64,000 bases of DNA from a virus, in the IMG/VR virus record IMGVR_UViG_3300033144_005525, positions 63,402 to 127,401 of that record; one strand, written 5' to 3'. The notes under the pieces are model-generated. The model ran no database searches. It was given only the letters and a program-made list of their open reading frames with translations, and was not told where the DNA came from. Positions 811 through 62,099 of this stretch are shown here, one piece after another; within the stretch, counting starts at the first letter, position 1, and the number at the start of each line of letters is the position of its first letter. A program made the position numbers and the translations under genes.

Positions 811-1398
811 TCAGCAATCGACGAGCTCTCCGTTCGTCAACCAGGCGTGGTAGTACTCCGGCGTCCCGGCCTCGCCCATTCCGATCGATGGGCGGGCCGT
901 GATGTTCGGGGGCTCCCCGCTCCTAGTCCACCCAGGTACCTTCTTACTGTTGGTAGCCGGCCCATCGATAGGCCAGTCTCCTCCCGGAGTGCGGACGATG
1001 AGGGTGCGTCCATCTGGACCCCTCCACACCTTAGGCATCCAATCCGCATACCACATGGACCCTAACGGAGAATCCCCAATCGTAGTGAACTCTCCGTTGT
1101 CTGATCTCCCATACAGTCGATTGCGATTTTGTTGCCAGTTGTCTTCCTCATCGAATTCGTAGCCACATTCGCAGTGAGTAGGCCATTGAGGATCATCATG
1201 AGGGAAGTCGTCGGCGCCCATCCCTTCATCCTCGCTCCATTGGATGACTCCAATAGGAATAGAGGCGTTGTGGTAGCTCATCTTTCCAGGACACTTGCGA
1301 ACTTCATCCGACTTATTGAATCCACAGTACCGACGCAAAGAAACCTGTGCTTTTCCTATGGGTTCCAGAAATAGACACTGGATACGGCGTTTCGACAT
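811..1398 (-). CDS. Conserved phage protein of unknown function with CxCG pair
   Basis: About 195 residues from the ATG at MSKRRIQCLFLEP; a GTG start 69 bases further upstream (1467) is also open. The protein has a Cys pair (HCECGYEF) near the middle and further Cys near the N-terminus (RRYCGFN, RKCPG), compatible with metal binding. The C-terminal half is rich in Gly, Pro and Trp. No catalytic motif is recognised. It is convergent with the RHH gene and divergent from the HARE-HTH gene. Confidence 0.6.
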   Translation of the reverse strand: MSKRRIQCLFLEPIGKAQVSLRRYCGFNKSDEVRKCPGKMSYHNASIPIGVIQWSEDEGMGADDFPHDDPQWPTHCECGYEFDEEDNWQQNRNRLYGRSDNGEFTTIGDSPLGSMWYADWMPKVWRGPDGRTLIVRTPGGDWPIDGPATNSKKVPGWTRSGEPPNITARPSIGMGEAGTPEYYHAWLTNGELVDC

Positions 1399-1487
1399 AC
1401 CCAATCGTAGCTCTCTGTTTGATCCGAACAAAGAAAACGGATGTAAGGTGATTTCGAGGCCTCGCACCCCGCTTCACTAAGGAGACG

Positions 1488-1709
1488 ATGTCCAATCTAA
1501 ACGTAATTGAATCTGTCCTACGCAACGCTGGTGAACCCCTCCGTGTTCCTCAGATCATCGAACGTGCGGGAGACAGACTACCCACTCAATCCAGAACACC
1601 GAGGGATGTAGTCGCTCGAGACCTGTCCATCGACATACGAGACAACGACCAGTCGAAGTTCAAGAGGGTAGAGACTGGTCTGTATTGCTTGGTGGACGGC
1701 AATGAGTGA
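1488..1709 (+). CDS. HARE-HTH domain protein
   Basis: 73 residues that make up a single HARE-HTH (HB1/ASXL/restriction-endonuclease HTH) domain: helix (VIESVLRNAGEPLRVPQII), a second helix, then the wing with the typical closing FKRVETGLYCL. In bacteria and phages this fold is found beside nucleases, helicases and RNA polymerase delta and binds DNA. The start has an AAGGAG sequence upstream. The end overlaps the next gene by 8 bases, so the two are probably coupled. Confidence 0.75.
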   Translation: MSNLNVIESVLRNAGEPLRVPQIIERAGDRLPTQSRTPRDVVARDLSIDIRDNDQSKFKRVETGLYCLVDGNE

Positions 1710-2208
1710 GTTCGTCGATATCGTATTCGACGGCCCACCCGGAGTTCCGAGCTTCAATGCTGGTCAGTTCGTAGAGATCGAGAACGATCGAGGTGAGAGC
1801 ATCAGGTTCGGTAGCATGATGGTCCGCAAAGACGGACAACATGTGATTCGGATAACTCGGGATGATGTTCAACAAACGCTCTCGGTATCTCGCGGAACCC
1901 TACGAACTGTGTTGGCAGAGAAAGCCCTGAAGGCCCTCTGCAGCGATAGTGTGTGGGAGGGACTACAAGTCTACCGTCGCCAGTGCTGGAGAGTGATGGA
2001 CAAGGTAGACGAGCTCGCCAGCGACTTCGACAGTATTGCCAACTTCACTAGGGAGCAGATGCCGAAGGTGGCAAACTACGCTATGGAGGCTGCTTCTCGT
2101 GCCCGCGGAAACCAGCCCCCTCCCAACTGCATCTGCCACGAAACCACAGTTGGAAAAGGCGACTGTCCTGCCTGTGGTCCTCGACCCCAACTGTCAACGA
2201 CTGCGTAA
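1702..2208 (+). CDS. Conserved phage protein with 'FVDIVFDGPPG' N-terminus and Cys-rich tail
   Basis: 168 residues. The first 55 (FVDIVFDGPPG, FVEIENDRGESI) match a small phage/actinobacterial family of unknown function that I recognise by pattern. The middle is helical. The last 30 residues carry a likely zinc knuckle (CICHETTVGKGDCPACG). The arrangement suggests that the small domain was fused to a second helical and zinc-binding module. Start ATG overlaps the HARE-HTH gene. Confidence 0.65.
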   Translation: MSEFVDIVFDGPPGVPSFNAGQFVEIENDRGESIRFGSMMVRKDGQHVIRITRDDVQQTLSVSRGTLRTVLAEKALKALCSDSVWEGLQVYRRQCWRVMDKVDELASDFDSIANFTREQMPKVANYAMEAASRARGNQPPPNCICHETTVGKGDCPACGPRPQLSTTA

Positions 2209-2213
2209 GTAAA

Positions 2214-2321
2214 GTGCTCTGGATCTTCTTAGCGGTTCTGATAGGCTTCTGGGTGCTCCTCATGTTGGGGCTCTCTGCAGCATTCGATGCCGCTAAGAAG
2301 TTCAGAGATCTTGATAAATGA
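2214..2321 (+). CDS. Tiny single-span membrane protein
   Basis: 35 residues from a GTG start 5 bases after the previous stop: a long hydrophobic helix (LWIFLAVLIGFWVLLMLGL) and a charged tail (KKFRDLDK). It ends 3 bases before the tmRNA 5' end. There is no strong ribosome binding site, so the call rests on the membrane-segment composition and the tight packing. Confidence 0.4.
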   Translation: MLWIFLAVLIGFWVLLMLGLSAAFDAAKKFRDLDK

Positions 2322-2324
2322 ATA

Positions 2325-2684
2325 GGGCGTGAATTGGTTTCGACGGGGGTAGAAGAGTTCGAGTTGCGTGTCGAGGTTGGTCGGCTGGCCTCGTTAAAAG
2401 CCGTCCAAACAACAGTTGCCAACGACAACGTTGACTCTGTTGAGCTCGTCGCTCAGGCGGCGTAGTTCATGGGCTTCTGGAGAGCCTCGAAACAGAATGG
2501 GAGCTTGCTCCTGCTCCAGTGGTGGAGGCGCCTTCGGGCGTCCTTGCCCCTCCCGAGGGTTTAAACCGGGCGTAACAAAACACGATACGTATGAGCCATG
2601 TTGTCGGTGAACGGAAACCGAATACACACGTAGACACTTGAACAACGCTACTTTCGGACTGGAGTTCGATTCTCCACACGTCCA
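2325..2684 (+). ncRNA. ssrA: Transfer-messenger RNA (tmRNA)
   Basis: 360-nt tmRNA for trans-translation: it enters stalled ribosomes as alanyl-tmRNA, supplies a tag reading frame and releases them. The 5' end GGGCGTG pairs with the 3' CACGTCC in a seven-pair acceptor stem with a G3-U70 wobble, the alanine identity element, followed by discriminator A. The canonical GGTTTCGACGG follows the 5' end. A T arm with loop TTCGATT sits at 2660-2676. The PK1-type segment (TCGGCTGGCCTCG..AAAAGCCG) lies just before the tag. CCA is not encoded (CTA follows), so it would be added by the host enzyme. Confidence 0.96.
2418..2465 (+). other. tmRNA tag reading frame (15 codons plus TAG)
   Basis: The resume codon GCC follows the conserved 'ACAGTT' lead-in. 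The frame reads ANDNVDSVELVAQAA and then TAG. It keeps the AND start of bacterial tags, but it is longer than the common 10-11 residues and ends in AQAA rather than ALAA. Confidence 0.9.
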
Positions 2685-2701
2685 CTACTTTAGGAAACCT
2701 C

Positions 2702-2881
2702 GTGTACACGATCTGGAAGAAATGCCCGAATCCAGATTGCGGGGCCAAGTCTCTTCTGTACTTCCCTACATGGCAGCGCACAACGCTCGTGCTCTGCACC
2801 GTCTGCGATCGGCTGTACCAAGTAGACGAGTTTCTGAAGAAAGCGATAAGGATCGGAACAGGTACTCCCGGTCCTTACTAG
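2702..2881 (+). CDS. Small zinc-ribbon protein
   Basis: 59 residues from a GTG start that sits after AGGAAACCTC, a good match to the ribosome-binding pattern of this phage. Two Cys pairs (CPNPDC and CTVC), about 24 residues apart, make a zinc ribbon; the rest is basic and aromatic. It begins 17 bases after the tmRNA, so both may be cut from one transcript. Function unknown. Confidence 0.65.
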   Translation: MYTIWKKCPNPDCGAKSLLYFPTWQRTTLVLCTVCDRLYQVDEFLKKAIRIGTGTPGPY

Positions 2882-3070
2882 ATCATCTCCAGCTGTGGAA
2901 ACAGATGGCGCAGATCTTCATAGCTTTCCTGCGAAATATTCGATCCCAAAGAGTCCTCTTCGCTTTGAAGACTCGGTGGCGATCACAACGAGGACAATGC
3001 TTTAACCGTCTGATCGGTCTGCGTTGGTTCGTCGGTGTGTCATCGCCGAAGGACATGAGATCAGACTACC
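2882..3070 (+). other. Short stretch without a convincing gene
   Basis: A frame from ATG 2905 (73 codons, ending at 3126 inside the next gene in another frame) and a 36-codon frame from GTG 2896 are both open. Neither has a recognisable product or clear codon signature. I see no hairpin terminator here. Confidence 0.3.
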
Positions 3071-3490
3071 ATGATAGGTTTACAAACGATGATCCGACTC
3101 GAGTCGAGCCCAATCCTTGCTATTGATTTCGATGGGACTTGCGTAAGCAACATCAATGACTACCCAAAGGTCGGTTCAGATATCGGTGCTGCTCCATGGT
3201 TAAAGGCCTTCGTGTCCGCAGGGGCTCGCCTCATACTCTGGACAGTCCGCAGCGGGGATGGACTGAAGCCGGCCGTCAAGTGGTTCAAAGACAACAAGAT
3301 CCCTCTGTGGGGGATCAACGAGAACATAGACTACTCTCAGCCCAAATCCCCCAAAGCTCATGCTCATCTCTTCATCGACGATCGAGCCTTCGGAGCTCCT
3401 GTCATCAAACAGGAGAACGGACAAGCGCACATCGACTGGAACAAAGTCGGTCCCGCTGTTCTAGCTGAGCTGCTGAAGAAGAAGGACTAG
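3071..3490 (+). CDS. HAD-superfamily hydrolase
   Basis: 139 residues (133 if ATG 3089, preceded by AGGTTTACAAACG, is the start). HAD motif I is AIDFDGTCV with the nucleophile and acid Asp; motif II is LILWTVRSG; a Lys (SPKAHA) and motif IV LFIDDRAFG follow in order. Small stand-alone HAD phosphatases of this type occur in phages and are predicted to remove phosphate from small metabolites or nucleotides; the substrate cannot be told from sequence. It lacks a cap domain. Confidence 0.85.
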   Translation: MIGLQTMIRLESSPILAIDFDGTCVSNINDYPKVGSDIGAAPWLKAFVSAGARLILWTVRSGDGLKPAVKWFKDNKIPLWGINENIDYSQPKSPKAHAHLFIDDRAFGAPVIKQENGQAHIDWNKVGPAVLAELLKKKD

Positions 3491-46247: not shown

Positions 46248-47030
46248 GCCATAGAGTGCCTCGGCAGCACGCACTTTGGGAAGGACATGTGAGAATTCCT
46301 CTTCGGTCATCTGTCCCGAATCGTAGACCCTGTGGTGGGTGGGACAAAGAACGAGGCAGTTCTCTTTTTCGATCGAACCGCCTTCTTTGACTGATTTGAT
46401 GTGAGCAAAGTCGAGAGTACGGTCTTCTCCACAGATCTCACAGCCATCAATGTTGAGTTCTTGGAAGACCTTGCGCTTCTTAGTGGAATGAGTCGAGAAA
46501 CGAAGATCTTTGGTGCGCCTCCAAGGAGCCTCGTGACCAACATCCTTCATGCGTCGGCAGATGACTCCATAGGAGACGTCATAGAGACGAGACAACTCTT
46601 CATAGGTCTTGCCTGCGTTGGAGAGTTGGACGGCCTCTTCAATGGGAATCTCTTGACGACGCCCATGATTGCGAGGACCGTTCGTCCACCTGTCTCTAGG
46701 GATGCTGAACCTCTCCATCCAGTCAATCCAGGTAGCGTAAGGGACCTTGTAGTGGCGGGCAGCAGAAGCAGCAGAGTCGAAGGCTGGGAGTGCTTCGAGC
46801 ATCCATTCACGAGTGGGCATGAACCCGGCGACTTTCTTCGTCCGCACCCCACCACTTCCTCGGCGCGGTACCTCATGTCGCTTGAGTAGTTGACGAACAC
46901 CTGGAATGGAGCAGCTCTCTTCCTTGGCAATCTCCAACGTCGACATCTCCCGATTCACATAGAAATCGATGATGCGTTCCGCATTGAGGCGTTGTTTTGG
47001 CATGACCCCTATGTTAGCACCAATTGCCAT
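46218..47030 (-). CDS. HNH homing endonuclease
   Basis: 270 residues. Two helix-turn-helix segments (about 15-50 and 130-165: TYEELSRLYDVSYGVICRR) are followed by an HNH nuclease (CEICGEDRTLDFAHI, NCLVLCPTHHRVYD; residues about 197-240) with both zinc Cys pairs. Free-standing HNH endonucleases spread by cutting their target site in related genomes. Its last nine residues, WTNGFYGGW, are a copy of the end of the upstream gene, which suggests how it inserted without damaging it. Confidence 0.85.
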   Translation of the reverse strand: MAIGANIGVMPKQRLNAERIIDFYVNREMSTLEIAKEESCSIPGVRQLLKRHEVPRRGSGGVRTKKVAGFMPTREWMLEALPAFDSAASAARHYKVPYATWIDWMERFSIPRDRWTNGPRNHGRRQEIPIEEAVQLSNAGKTYEELSRLYDVSYGVICRRMKDVGHEAPWRRTKDLRFSTHSTKKRKVFQELNIDGCEICGEDRTLDFAHIKSVKEGGSIEKENCLVLCPTHHRVYDSGQMTEEEFSHVLPKVRAAEALYGWTNGFYGGW

Positions 47031-47039
47031 AGTAACAGG

Positions 47040-47555
47040 TCACCAACCTCCATAAAATCCATTGGTCCACAAATATTCTGAGTGTACTCCACCTCCCCAG
47101 GCCTGCTCGATGTTGATGGCTACCTTGAGACGTAGCTTCTTCGATTCGTAGTCATTCCGGAACAGCTGGATCCAGGCATGGTACAGCGGTGTCTTGTCGC
47201 TGATCCCTACCTGAATACCACCATCGGAGAAGGTGAGATGGTTACGAGTCATCAGCAAGCCCGCGGACTCGAGCAAGTTGATGACCGTGCCTCGAAGCAA
47301 GAGACGCCTCGAGGGGAAGTTGGTGATGCCTACCGGACCGATGAGGGGAGGAGTCGTGTTCCAGTCATCGATACAATCAGCAATCGCCCAGAGTACGAGT
47401 CTGGGCGAATGCTCGACGCCTTGGATCAGACGGTTTAGCTCGGCGTGGTCCCTCATGAACTCACGGACGAGACCTGCCATCTGCTCGAACGCTAACTGCT
47501 CAGCCGGTCGGAACCCTCCAAAGATATCGGAGCTGGTGCCTACAGTTGTTGACAC
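47040..47555 (-). CDS. Head-tail joining/structural protein
   Basis: 171 residues. Helical N-terminal half (AFEQMAGLVREFMRDHAEL), then beta-containing part, ending in EYLWTNGFYGGW. Its size and its place between the capsid and neck genes suggest a head completion or connector protein. The C-terminal end is the presumed target copy of the HNH insertion. Confidence 0.5.
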   Translation of the reverse strand: MSTTVGTSSDIFGGFRPAEQLAFEQMAGLVREFMRDHAELNRLIQGVEHSPRLVLWAIADCIDDWNTTPPLIGPVGITNFPSRRLLLRGTVINLLESAGLLMTRNHLTFSDGGIQVGISDKTPLYHAWIQLFRNDYESKKLRLKVAINIEQAWGGGVHSEYLWTNGFYGGW

Positions 47556-48513: not shown

Positions 48514-49635
48514 CTAGAACTGCGAGACGTCCGGGAACTTCAGCCCGTCGTCCACACGGTTGTTCACCGCTCCGAGCTCATCCTCTGCCACCGGCAGCTT
48601 GGCTGCGAAGCCCGTGTCCGTTGCGGTCGGGGTGACCGAACCGGCGTAGAGCTCCAGCTTCCGCACCGAGGCCACGTTGATGATCGAAATGGCGATGTCC
48701 ATCCAGGACTGCCACGTGATCATGTTGGCGACTTTGTCGATGTAGAACTTGGTGTTGTTGAGGATGTAGTTCTTGCCCAGGAACTCCGGGGCCGTGAAGA
48801 CGTAGACATTTCCCGTGCGGAGGATGTCGGTCTTGATGGTCCGGATGAGCTTGCGGCCGAGGAGGACGTTGTACTTGTAGCCGTCGACCATCGTCTCCGA
48901 CTGCATCTTGTCACCCATGTCCTGGAGGGTCCAAGACAGGATGTCGTCGTAGTCTGGCTCGGTCATGAGGAACCGCTCCGAGCGCAGACGGTTGCCGTCT
49001 AGCAGCTTGAAGAGGTTGACCAGGTCCGGCCGCAGGATCGGCTGCACCGTGAAGGTGATGCCACCCAGAGTGAGGGCACCGGTGCCCTTGATGACTGCCG
49101 ACTGCACGACTCCGCCACTGTTGACGTCGTCGGCCCGGAGAGCCGTCGCTGAGCCACCGTTGGCTTCGGTCTGGAGACCCTGACACGCCGACTCGATGTG
49201 GCGTGTGAACTCACGGTCCTTGATCTCCTGCAGATCCTTCACCGAGTTGTCCTCGATGATCTTGGTGATCGGCATCTCGTAGGCGAGGAGCTCCTGCTCC
49301 GTCTTCTCGAACTTCTCCGAGCTGACGGTGTAGAAAGGCACCTCTGCCCTCGGGGCACGGATGAACCGAGCCGTCGGCTGACCACGGAAGGTCAGGGTCA
49401 TCGCACGAGACTGGGGCTCGATGTCGACGATCTTGACCAGGGTGTCGTGGTTCACCGACCGCTGGCAGTCGGCCCGGGTGACCGGGTCGGGCGGGATGAT
49501 CTTGTCCACGTAGCAGACCTCACGGAGGCGGTCACGGATGTAGACGCTGCCCAGGGCAGCGACCTTCTCCTTGCCTTCGGAGGTGTCGAGGTTTTGCGCG
49601 AACATGTCGTTGAGAACTCGTGCCGGAACGCTCAT
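48514..49635 (-). CDS. Major capsid protein
   Basis: 373 residues, HK97-like by size, position after protease and decoration genes, and composition. It has an N-terminal helix with RDRLREVCYVDKIIPPDPV, typical of capsid proteins of several large myoviruses; E-loop and spine-helix-like segments (LLAYEMPITKIIEDNSVKDL); and a beta-rich P-domain end. EKVAALG at about residue 22 could be the protease cleavage point. GGAAGCAACC precedes the ATG, and a strong terminator follows. Confidence 0.75.
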   Translation of the reverse strand: MSVPARVLNDMFAQNLDTSEGKEKVAALGSVYIRDRLREVCYVDKIIPPDPVTRADCQRSVNHDTLVKIVDIEPQSRAMTLTFRGQPTARFIRAPRAEVPFYTVSSEKFEKTEQELLAYEMPITKIIEDNSVKDLQEIKDREFTRHIESACQGLQTEANGGSATALRADDVNSGGVVQSAVIKGTGALTLGGITFTVQPILRPDLVNLFKLLDGNRLRSERFLMTEPDYDDILSWTLQDMGDKMQSETMVDGYKYNVLLGRKLIRTIKTDILRTGNVYVFTAPEFLGKNYILNNTKFYIDKVANMITWQSWMDIAISIINVASVRKLELYAGSVTPTATDTGFAAKLPVAEDELGAVNNRVDDGLKFPDVSQF

Positions 49636-59183: not shown

Positions 59184-59219
59184 AAGTGGGAGGGGCGTAA
59201 AGCACGCTCCCCCTACTTT
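59184..59219. terminator. Bidirectional terminator
   Basis: AAGTGGGAGGGGCGT pairs with ACGCTCCCCCTACTT, followed by TTAG. It lies between the convergent membrane gene and terminase gene. Confidence 0.75.
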
Positions 59220-61048
59220 TAGCTCTCTGGATGATGTTGCCTGGTATCTCTCATAGGAGCTATGACGTCTGGCCTCGGGTGTTTAATCATCGAAGCCAGG
59301 AAGCAAAGAAGAACGGAGTGGAAAGAGTCATCCGTCGTCATAGGACTCTTCTTGTAGACGTTCTCTCTGCGTTGCTCAGAATACTCAGAGAAGATGTTGA
59401 GGAAATCGGCTGCGAAGGGGGCCTGGAATTCTTCCCAGCATGGGAATCGGAACACGTTACGACGCTTGATAGCGTTGAAGATGTCCGACATGACCTCTGT
59501 GCGGTTAACCAGGAACCTCTTGAGCCCATCTTCCCATTTCACCTTAGCGTTCGGCGTCGAGTACTGATACTTGGCAATGCGTTGCCATCCGAACTTGCTG
59601 ATGAGCTTGTCGTTGGGCCAGAAGCCTCCGCCGTAATCGCACCCAGCTAGCTGCACCTTCCATCGCTCTATCTCTCTACTTACCAACTCGATCATTATCT
59701 TGGGTTCAGACTCTCGACCCTCGAAACGGTTGATGTAGACGATGGTGAACCGTCCCTGCAGGTAGCACCCAAGAGACAGAATTGTGTACGTGTTCTCTCC
59801 AGTTCCCCAATCGATTCCAGCGTAGATAGGAGTAGAGGCACCGAGATGCCTGATCATCTTCTCCTGGAAAGCTGCAGTGAGGTGAATGTTGGGATCACAG
59901 TTGTCCATGATATCTCGACGTGTAAGCGGTCGAGTACCTGTGTCGTAAGACAACCCCAAAACCTCGTTGTAGAACTTGGGACGTGAGTAAGTTTTCTGCT
60001 TCTGTAGGATCTCATCCCAACCAACCCAAGGGACCATGATCTGAGGGATACGGAAACCCTCATAGGGTTTGGGGATGTACTTGATGACGTCTGGATTCAA
60101 AGAGACCCACTGCGAATCGTCATCCATAGAAGCGATAGGCTTCTCGCAACGATCACATACCAAACCCTCTTTTCCGATGTGGTCCTCAGAGAGAATGTTC
60201 CAGTAAGCCTTGCTGAGGTGGGAACCTGTCTGGATAGCATGCCTATGGCAGGGAACTGCCCACTCGTTCTGGGTCGAATACTCAGTCCAGTAATACTCGA
60301 TTGGATTGTCCAGAGACTTCGGAGTCCCTGAGTACATGAAGATCTTAAAGTGCGAGTGCGATGCACACTCTTCGATAATCGGGATGTTGTCTGTGAGAAT
60401 GTCTTGGAGCTCATCAATACAGATGACGTCGGCAGGGATCCCACGAACACGATCAGCAGACATGTAGCAGTAGCGCAGAGTGATCTGACTACGGTTGATG
60501 AACTTCTTGAGGAAGACGTTGTCGGAGAGCTTGGTAGTGGTCCAGGACTTGAGGTACTCCGAGGTCTCGATGGGCTCCTTGAGCCTGTCCTGAGAGAAAA
60601 CCTTGGTCTGCTGATTGGTGGGAGAGACGTACAGAGCGTTGAGCGCCTGAATGATGCAGGCGTAGGACAACAACTTGTTTCCCAGGAGAGTGGACTTCTC
60701 TACCTGACGTCCGCATTTCAGCAAGGTTCTCTTACTGGACGTATCATATATCTGCCGAAGATACCGGCGACCCTCGAAGCTGAACTGCTCGTAGGTTTGC
60801 TTCAGCTTGTTCGGTAAACGAACAGCGAATTCCACGAAGCTAGAGGGGGATACATCTAGAAGCTCTCCCTGCCTCCGAACTACGTAGTCAACGTCGAACG
60901 ACTCTTCTGGCTCATGTTCGAAGTCCCACTCCTCTGGAAAGTCTGATCCAGAGAAGATGCCGTCGATACCATGTTGGACGATGGGTATCTGCTGCTCTCG
61001 CTCGAAGGCAGCTACGTCCTCAATGATTTCAAAGGCCATTGACCACAC
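59219..61048 (-). CDS. Terminase large subunit
   Basis: 609 residues (605 from ATG 61036). DNA-packaging motor ATPase and nuclease. The adenine-binding/Walker A-type segment is KCGRQVEKST (111-120), the GRQxEKS form common in phage terminases. Walker B with catalytic Glu is VICIDELQD (208-216); SGTPKSLDN is the coupling motif. The RNase H-like nuclease starts at YAGIDWGTGENT (about 410) and continues through CDYGGGFWPND and DDSFHS. A central zinc pair (CDRCEKP) is an addition. Complete and of normal length. Confidence 0.92.
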   Translation of the reverse strand: MWSMAFEIIEDVAAFEREQQIPIVQHGIDGIFSGSDFPEEWDFEHEPEESFDVDYVVRRQGELLDVSPSSFVEFAVRLPNKLKQTYEQFSFEGRRYLRQIYDTSSKRTLLKCGRQVEKSTLLGNKLLSYACIIQALNALYVSPTNQQTKVFSQDRLKEPIETSEYLKSWTTTKLSDNVFLKKFINRSQITLRYCYMSADRVRGIPADVICIDELQDILTDNIPIIEECASHSHFKIFMYSGTPKSLDNPIEYYWTEYSTQNEWAVPCHRHAIQTGSHLSKAYWNILSEDHIGKEGLVCDRCEKPIASMDDDSQWVSLNPDVIKYIPKPYEGFRIPQIMVPWVGWDEILQKQKTYSRPKFYNEVLGLSYDTGTRPLTRRDIMDNCDPNIHLTAAFQEKMIRHLGASTPIYAGIDWGTGENTYTILSLGCYLQGRFTIVYINRFEGRESEPKIMIELVSREIERWKVQLAGCDYGGGFWPNDKLISKFGWQRIAKYQYSTPNAKVKWEDGLKRFLVNRTEVMSDIFNAIKRRNVFRFPCWEEFQAPFAADFLNIFSEYSEQRRENVYKKSPMTTDDSFHSVLLCFLASMIKHPRPDVIAPMRDTRQHHPES

Positions 61049-61472: not shown

Positions 61473-62099
61473 ATGAATCAATCAGAAAAATATCGAATGT
61501 ATTCTGACTGTCTAGTGTGTGGAATAGATGAAGTAGGGAGAGGTAGTTTAGCTGGACCTCTTCTTGCTGTAGCTGCTCTGTTCAAAACGAAGGAAGTAGG
61601 AGTACCTGGAGTAGATGATTCCAAGAAACTAAGTCCAGGAAGAAGATTGAAATTATTTCGATTGATTCTCTGGAGTCCTCAACTAGTTGACTTCGGAATA
61701 GGGGAGGTAAGTTCTGGAGAGATAGAGAAGGTAGGGATTAACCACGCAAATATCCTGGCCTTCCAACGAGCTGTAGAAGCTCTGCCTCAGAGACCAAACC
61801 TCCTGATCGTAGATGGAGACGTAGGAGTTCCTGGCTGGGGACCAGATAACCAAATAGTCGAACCCAAGGCTGATGGAAACTACCCTGTCGTAAGTGCTGC
61901 CAGTATCCTGGCGAAGGTGATCAGAGACTCCTACATGGAGGAACTAGATTCTCTGGTACCTGGATATCGCTGGAAGAAGAACAAGGGGTACGGAACGAAG
62001 GACCACGTACAGGCTCTACAATCTCTAGGGCCTTCCCGTTTCCACAGACCTCAGTTCATCGGTAAGATAGTTTCACCACAGACAGGATGGAGCCTCTGA
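61473..62099 (+). CDS. rnhB: Ribonuclease HII
   Basis: 208 residues, normal length. Removes RNA from RNA-DNA hybrids, for example primers. The family motif GIDEVGRGSLAGPL carries D19 and E20; LLIVDGD supplies D114; VSAASILAKVIRDSYM supplies D152; and KNKGYGTKDH is the typical C-terminal motif. All four catalytic acids are present. The first half of the gene is visibly more AT-rich (AGA, TTA and GTA codons) than its neighbours, which hints at a different origin. Confidence 0.92.
   Translation: MNQSEKYRMYSDCLVCGIDEVGRGSLAGPLLAVAALFKTKEVGVPGVDDSKKLSPGRRLKLFRLILWSPQLVDFGIGEVSSGEIEKVGINHANILAFQRAVEALPQRPNLLIVDGDVGVPGWGPDNQIVEPKADGNYPVVSAASILAKVIRDSYMEELDSLVPGYRWKKNKGYGTKDHVQALQSLGPSRFHRPQFIGKIVSPQTGWSL

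What the first reader, a model, noticed from the sequence alone, without database searches (positions are those of the whole stretch)
2325..2684. Phage-encoded tmRNA with alanine identity element
Seen: acceptor stem GGGCGTG/CACGTCC with G3-U70, canonical 5' GGTTTCGACGG, T arm, PK1-like segment, resume codon and tag frame. Known: a few large phages, including some mycobacteriophages, carry tmRNA. Inference: the phage replaces or re-directs host ribosome rescue during infection, perhaps because it degrades host tmRNA or because late mRNAs stall.
Basis: partly seen in the sequence, partly recalled or inferred. Interest (0 to 1): 0.85.

Follow-up and report, generated by a model that had tools for sequence, protein, structure and literature searches.

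The report
Complete tmRNA in a large phage
A large uncultivated phage carries a complete, well-formed gene for tmRNA, the RNA that rescues stalled bacterial ribosomes; this is real and clearly phage-borne, but it is another example of something already known in several large phages.

Summary
Window 2325-2684 (+) is a complete one-piece tmRNA gene: Infernal RF00023 146.2 bits, E 2e-57; ARAGORN gives the same gene with tag ANDNVDSVELVAQAA. It has a 7/7 acceptor stem with G3-U70, a T arm, the D-loop motif GGTTTCGACGG, PK1, an A at -4 of the resume codon, and a stop codon. CCA is not encoded.

It lies well inside a 191-kb virus record with about 36 tRNA genes (none for Ala or Trp), a family-A DNA polymerase, a terminase and a capsid gene. 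Five relatives by capsid protein also carry tmRNA and at least three do not. Across 27 large-phage tmRNAs every acceptor pair holds (189/189) and covaries. No SmpB, CCA-adding enzyme, RNA ligase or tyrosine integrase was found in the record.

Most likely it is an ordinary tmRNA that borrows host SmpB, AlaRS and ClpXP to top up ribosome rescue during infection.

Phage tmRNAs are well known (Bxz1, Wildcat, phage G, huge phages), so this is a new member of a known kind. A side lead: large-virus tags often depart from the usual LAA ending (exploratory, not host-matched).

The parts
2325..2684 (+). one-piece tmRNA (ssrA) gene, discriminator base A at 2684; CCA not encoded (2685-2687 = CTA)
   Evidence: ARAGORN; RF00023 146.2 bits, E 2.1e-57
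2325..2331 (+). acceptor stem 5' strand GGGCGTG, G3 of G3-U70
   Evidence: 7/7 pairs; pair G-U at position 3 in 27/27 large-phage tmRNAs
2677..2683 (+). acceptor stem 3' strand CACGTCC, U70 partner
   Evidence: sequence
2336..2346 (+). D-loop motif GGTTTCGACGG (SmpB-binding region of the tRNA-like domain; role from established knowledge)
   Evidence: conserved with small variation in 9/9 compared tmRNAs
2372..2407 (+). pseudoknot PK1: S1 CGAGG/CCTCG, S2 TGGTCGGC/GCCGTCCA (7 of 8 pairs)
   Evidence: compensatory changes in relatives
2414..2414 (+). A at -4 of the resume codon, equivalent of E. coli A86
   Evidence: 9/9 compared tmRNAs; function of A86 in PMC2481249
2418..2465 (+). tag reading frame ANDNVDSVELVAQAA plus stop TAG
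2660..2676 (+). T arm: stem TGGAG/CTCCA, loop TTCGATT
2214..2321 (+). 35-aa hydrophobic ORF ending 3 bases before the tmRNA; suggests co-transcription and 5' processing (inference)
   Evidence: no sigma-70 promoter-like site in 1300-3300
2702..2881 (+). 59-aa ORF with CxxxxC and CxxC motifs starting 17 bases after the tmRNA; no Pfam match
48514..49635 (-). major capsid protein gene, used to find relatives
   Evidence: PHROG 2522 'major head protein'; relatives
59219..61048 (-). terminase large subunit gene, used to find relatives
   Evidence: PHROG 675; relatives

Best explanation
The gene makes a functional one-piece tmRNA that is transcribed with neighbouring phage genes, trimmed by host RNases, given its CCA and charged with alanine by host enzymes. 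With host SmpB it enters ribosomes stalled on broken mRNA, adds Ala-ANDNVDSVELVAQAA and releases them. The phage gains extra ribosome-rescue capacity while mRNAs and tRNAs are being cut during infection, alongside its array of about 36 tRNA genes. Shown: gene, structure, identity element, intact tag frame, phage context, recurrence in relatives, no SmpB found in the record. Inferred: transcription, processing, charging, use of host SmpB, and the benefit.
For: Full-length RF00023 match at 146.2 bits. Acceptor 189/189 and T stem 135/135 pairs over 27 large-phage tmRNAs, against shuffle means 147.9 and 99.2, with several pair types at variable positions; G3-U70 27/27. A86 equivalent and open tag frame in 9/9, although the middle of the tag is free to change; ANDN occurs in 8/9 tags. 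tmRNA recurs in capsid relatives G004, G005, G026, G031, G040 from other metagenome records. About 36 tRNAs in the same record. No SmpB in the record, in G004, G005, G014, G018, or in phage Mx1.
Against: No expression or activity data. The host is unknown, so fit to host SmpB cannot be judged. At least three relatives of 177-199 kb lack a full tmRNA (G014, G018, G023), so it is dispensable or the records are incomplete. PK2-PK4 were not resolved individually; model confidence is low there. Most of the 27 tmRNAs were found by ARAGORN, which favours good acceptor stems, so the pairing count is partly circular. PK1 stem 2 has a U-U mismatch.
Confidence: 0.75

Rival explanations
1. The phage tmRNA rescues ribosomes but its tag is a weak or different degron, so tagged proteins escape the usual ClpXP removal: rescue is uncoupled from degradation.
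For: Tag ends AQAA rather than LAA. In an exploratory survey, tags of large-virus tmRNAs end in LAA in 8/42 against 29/42 in small or prophage-like contigs and a few genomes, and lack the final AA in 8/42 against 1/42 (tags).
Against: The window's tag keeps the terminal AA. The survey is not matched for host, was classed by hand and chosen by seed patterns. From memory, some Rhodopseudomonas and Bradyrhizobium tags also end in AQAA.
Confidence: 0.13
2. It is a decoy that ties up host SmpB or stalled ribosomes and so inhibits host trans-translation, as proposed for the tRNA-like-domain-only RNA of mycobacteriophage DS6A.
For: DS6A precedent (PMC4131195; PMC11915505). No phage SmpB.
Against: The decoy needs only the tRNA-like domain; here the tag frame, A86 equivalent, stop codon and PK1 are all kept in relatives.
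Confidence: 0.05
3. It is an attachment-site relic or recently captured host gene with no role in infection.
For: Temperate phages often integrate at tmRNA genes. The tmRNA tree does not follow the capsid tree, so the gene moves.
Against: The gene is full length, not a 3' fragment; no tyrosine integrase found; tmRNAs recur in several related phages under evident structural constraint.
Confidence: 0.05
4. Assembly chimera: a bacterial tmRNA joined to phage sequence.
For: The record is a metagenome contig classed as linear.
Against: The gene is about 66 kb inside the contig, packed tightly between small same-strand ORFs, and independent contigs of the same phage group carry tmRNAs, some inside tRNA arrays.
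Confidence: 0.02

Closest known systems
Bacterial standard (one-piece) tmRNA, Rfam RF00023
   Same: Full-length model match, G3-U70, D-loop motif, PK1, A86 equivalent, tag frame with stop
   Different: Encoded by a phage, CCA not encoded, tag ends AQAA, PK2-PK4 region diverged from the model
Phage-encoded tmRNAs: mycobacteriophages Bxz1, Wildcat and others, Bacillus phage G (PMC4131195), huge phages (PMC7162821), Streptomyces BE phages (PMC11237712), Sinorhizobium phage AP-J-162 (PMC11242549)
   Same: Phage genome with a tmRNA; in several of them beside a large tRNA set
   Different: No nucleotide match for the first 25 kb of the window in the phage collection, so a different phage group; some huge phages also carry SmpB (PMC7162821), not found here
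Myxococcus phage Mx1 tmRNA (OR576727.2, 46646-47022; not annotated)
   Same: Only BLAST hit in the phage collection; shares the 5' end and PK1; sits in a tRNA array
   Different: Tag VNTNVFGSQMMAAA; about 49% identity overall
DS6A tmRNA-like RNA
   Same: Phage-borne and tmRNA-derived
   Different: DS6A has little more than the tRNA-like domain (PMC4131195); this one is complete

Membership tests
tmRNA (RF00023) | Covariance-model score above the curated threshold over the full model | tested here: met
   146.2 vs 47 bits, positions 1-374
tmRNA (RF00023) | Alanine acceptor stem with G3-U70 | tested here: met
   7/7 pairs, G-U at position 3
tmRNA (RF00023) | D-loop GGNTTCGACNG-type motif and T arm | tested here: met
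tmRNA (RF00023) | Tag reading frame with resume codon, A at -4 and stop | tested here: met
   ANDNVDSVELVAQAA, A at -4
tmRNA (RF00023) | PK1 upstream of the tag | tested here: met
   S1 and S2 found and varying in relatives
tmRNA (RF00023) | PK2-PK4 | tested here: inconclusive
   Low model confidence in that region; no unambiguous pseudoknots from enumeration
tmRNA (RF00023) | Charging, SmpB binding and tagging | not testable with these tools
   needs bench work
Phage-encoded tmRNA | Gene lies within a phage genome, not in flanking host DNA | tested here: met
   191-kb record with terminase, capsid and DNA polymerase; gene at 65.7 kb; recurs in relatives
DS6A-type tRNA-like-domain-only decoy | No tag reading frame | tested here: not met
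   Tag frame intact
Permuted (two-piece) tmRNA, RF04321 | Permuted order, score above threshold | tested here: not met
   27.6 bits, below the cutoff of 47

The most novel reading that the evidence does not exclude
tmRNAs of large phages as a class keep ribosome rescue but have drifted or been selected away from the strong ClpXP degron (LAA), so infection uncouples rescue from protein destruction; the window's AQAA tag would be a mild case.
Probability: 0.13. Interest if true: 0.6.

Novelty: new member of a known kind. Interest (0 to 1): 0.27.

Why it matters
It adds a well-supported tmRNA from an uncultivated phage group in which the gene comes and goes between relatives, useful for asking why phages carry tmRNA. 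It also shows that tmRNAs go unannotated in isolated phage genomes (Mx1, DLP6, Rb1), and that phage tags offer a natural set for testing which part of trans-translation phages need: ribosome release or degradation.

Tried and rejected
Phage-collection megablast of the first 25 kb found nothing. Host: the PK1 pattern shared with Mx1 hits Planctomycetota genomes and MAGs, one Omnitrophota MAG and one viral contig, but the bacterial tags differ and the two Planctomycetota tmRNAs compared are only 51-52% identical to the window's, so no host is claimed. Integration-site relic: no tyrosine integrase and a full-length gene. Phage-encoded CCA-adding enzyme (PF01743) and RNA ligase (PF09414): none. 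Own promoter: no consensus site; weak evidence because phage or host sigma factors may differ. Bxz1 and Wildcat records were not in the collection under the accessions tried, so their tags were not compared. PK2-PK4 by stem enumeration: no clear set. Simple vertical inheritance: capsid and tmRNA trees disagree (few taxa, modest support).

Full report
Check. ARAGORN reports one RNA gene in the window, a tmRNA at 2325-2685 on the + strand with tag ANDNVDSVELVAQAA. Rfam cmscan gives RF00023 over its full length at 146.2 bits, E 2.1e-57. The permuted model scores below its cutoff. The acceptor stem GGGCGTG/CACGTCC pairs fully with G3-U70, the T stem TGGAG/CTCCA pairs fully, and PK1 is present with one U-U mismatch. 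The resume codon is GCC at 2418 with an A four bases before it, the position whose mutation to a pyrimidine abolishes measurable activity in an E. coli assay (PMC2481249). The bases after the discriminator A2684 read CTA, so CCA must be added after transcription. The minimum-free-energy fold is more stable than shuffles (z = -2.1).

Context. The window is 63402-127401 of a 191,126-base IMG/VR record. It encodes a terminase and a capsid protein, and outside the window a family-A DNA polymerase, DnaB-like helicase and RecA-like protein, so the record is a phage. The 51.8-60.7 kb stretch carries 35 tRNA genes by ARAGORN (overlapping duplicates removed) plus one more by Rfam, anticodon CAT; none is for alanine or tryptophan. 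The tmRNA lies about 5 kb beyond the array on the other strand, 3 bases after a 35-aa ORF and 17 bases before a 59-aa ORF. No sigma-70-like promoter was seen nearby, which suggests co-transcription and processing (inference).

Relatives. Terminase and capsid searches found many uncultivated relatives. Full tmRNAs occur in G004 (106 kb), G005 (210 kb), G026 (193 kb) and G031 (197 kb), and in G040, which has a 68% identical capsid protein and the tmRNA of locus L186. Records of similar size, G014, G018 and G023, show only weak partial or tRNA-sized matches, so the gene is patchy; none of these records is known to be complete. tmRNA and capsid trees disagree: G005 is 77% identical to the window phage in capsid protein but its tmRNA is only 52% identical, while G026 and the distant phage G037 (capsid 35% identical to the window's) have tmRNAs 72% identical. 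Repeated gain, loss or exchange is the likeliest reading, though the trees are small.

Constraint. Over 27 large-phage tmRNAs all 189 acceptor and 135 T-stem cells pair, against shuffle means of 147.9 and 99.2 (maxima 165 and 115), with several pair types at variable positions; the third pair is G-U in all. PK1 stem 1 changes in step (CGAGG/CCTCG, CGTGG/CCACG, CGAGC/GCTCG, AGGGG/CCCCT). Caveat: most of these genes were found by ARAGORN, which favours paired acceptors; G026 was found by Infernal only and also fits. The A at -4 is present in 9/9 of the window's group and its nearest comparators.

Mechanism. No SmpB model hit exists in the record or in G004, G005, G014, G018 or Mx1, and no CCA-adding enzyme or RNA ligase of the families tested in the record, so the RNA must rely on host partners (inference from absence; the record may be incomplete). 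With the key functional features kept, ordinary trans-translation is the best explanation. The benefit is inferred: mRNA and tRNA cleavage during infection strands ribosomes, and a phage with about 36 tRNA genes is plausibly insured against such damage.

Tag survey (exploratory). Tags were read by ARAGORN from viral contigs found by seed patterns and other searches (one tag from an annotation). I classed them by hand as large-virus (contig of about 90 kb or more, or several tRNAs nearby, or an isolated phage) or small/prophage-like plus a few bacterial genomes. LAA endings: 8/42 against 29/42; lacking a final AA: 8/42 against 1/42. Classes were set after the tags were visible, hosts are not matched, and related tags are not independent, so the Fisher values are descriptive only. 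It is a lead, not a finding.

Known or new. Phage tmRNAs were catalogued by 2014 (PMC4131195), appear in huge phages together with SmpB genes (PMC7162821), and in tRNA-rich isolated phages (PMC11237712; PMC11242549). This is a new member of a known kind.

Noticed in passing
L012:6001-6377 (OR576727.2, 46646-47022): Myxococcus phage Mx1 has an unannotated tmRNA, tag VNTNVFGSQMMAAA with a Val resume codon; a 'Hef-like endonuclease' CDS annotated at 46919-47044 overlaps it and is probably spurious.
   Followed up: partly
L366:1445-1788 (KU682439.2) and L367:1443-1871 (PQ569993.1): Stenotrophomonas phage DLP6 and Xanthomonas phage Rb1 carry unannotated permuted (two-piece) tmRNA genes, RF04321 136.8 and 103.4 bits; their gammaproteobacterial hosts are thought to have the one-piece form (from memory, not tested).
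   Followed up: partly
L047:5402-5702, L058:3106-3406, L090:1356-1650: Permuted tmRNAs inside phage tRNA arrays have tags ending TTALV and AQTV, without the terminal AA; L047 and L090 match the cyanobacterial tmRNA family.
   Followed up: partly
G000:C1:40046-41512 (L006:4046-5512): Phage gene with WGR, PARP regulatory and PARP catalytic domains, a PARP1-like architecture.
   Followed up: no
G000:C1:51878-60741: About 36 tRNA genes covering 18 amino acids, none for Ala or Trp, whereas relatives G004, G005 and G014 do carry tRNA-Ala.
   Followed up: partly
G026 (L358) and G037 (L181): tmRNAs 72% identical in phages whose capsid proteins are distant, suggesting exchange of tmRNA genes between phage lineages.
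   Followed up: partly
window 61473-62099: Phage-encoded ribonuclease HII (PF01351, E 4e-37).
   Followed up: no
L138:2818-2890 (G014): tRNA-like gene for which ARAGORN reports a four-base anticodon (attg); possibly an artefact.
   Followed up: no
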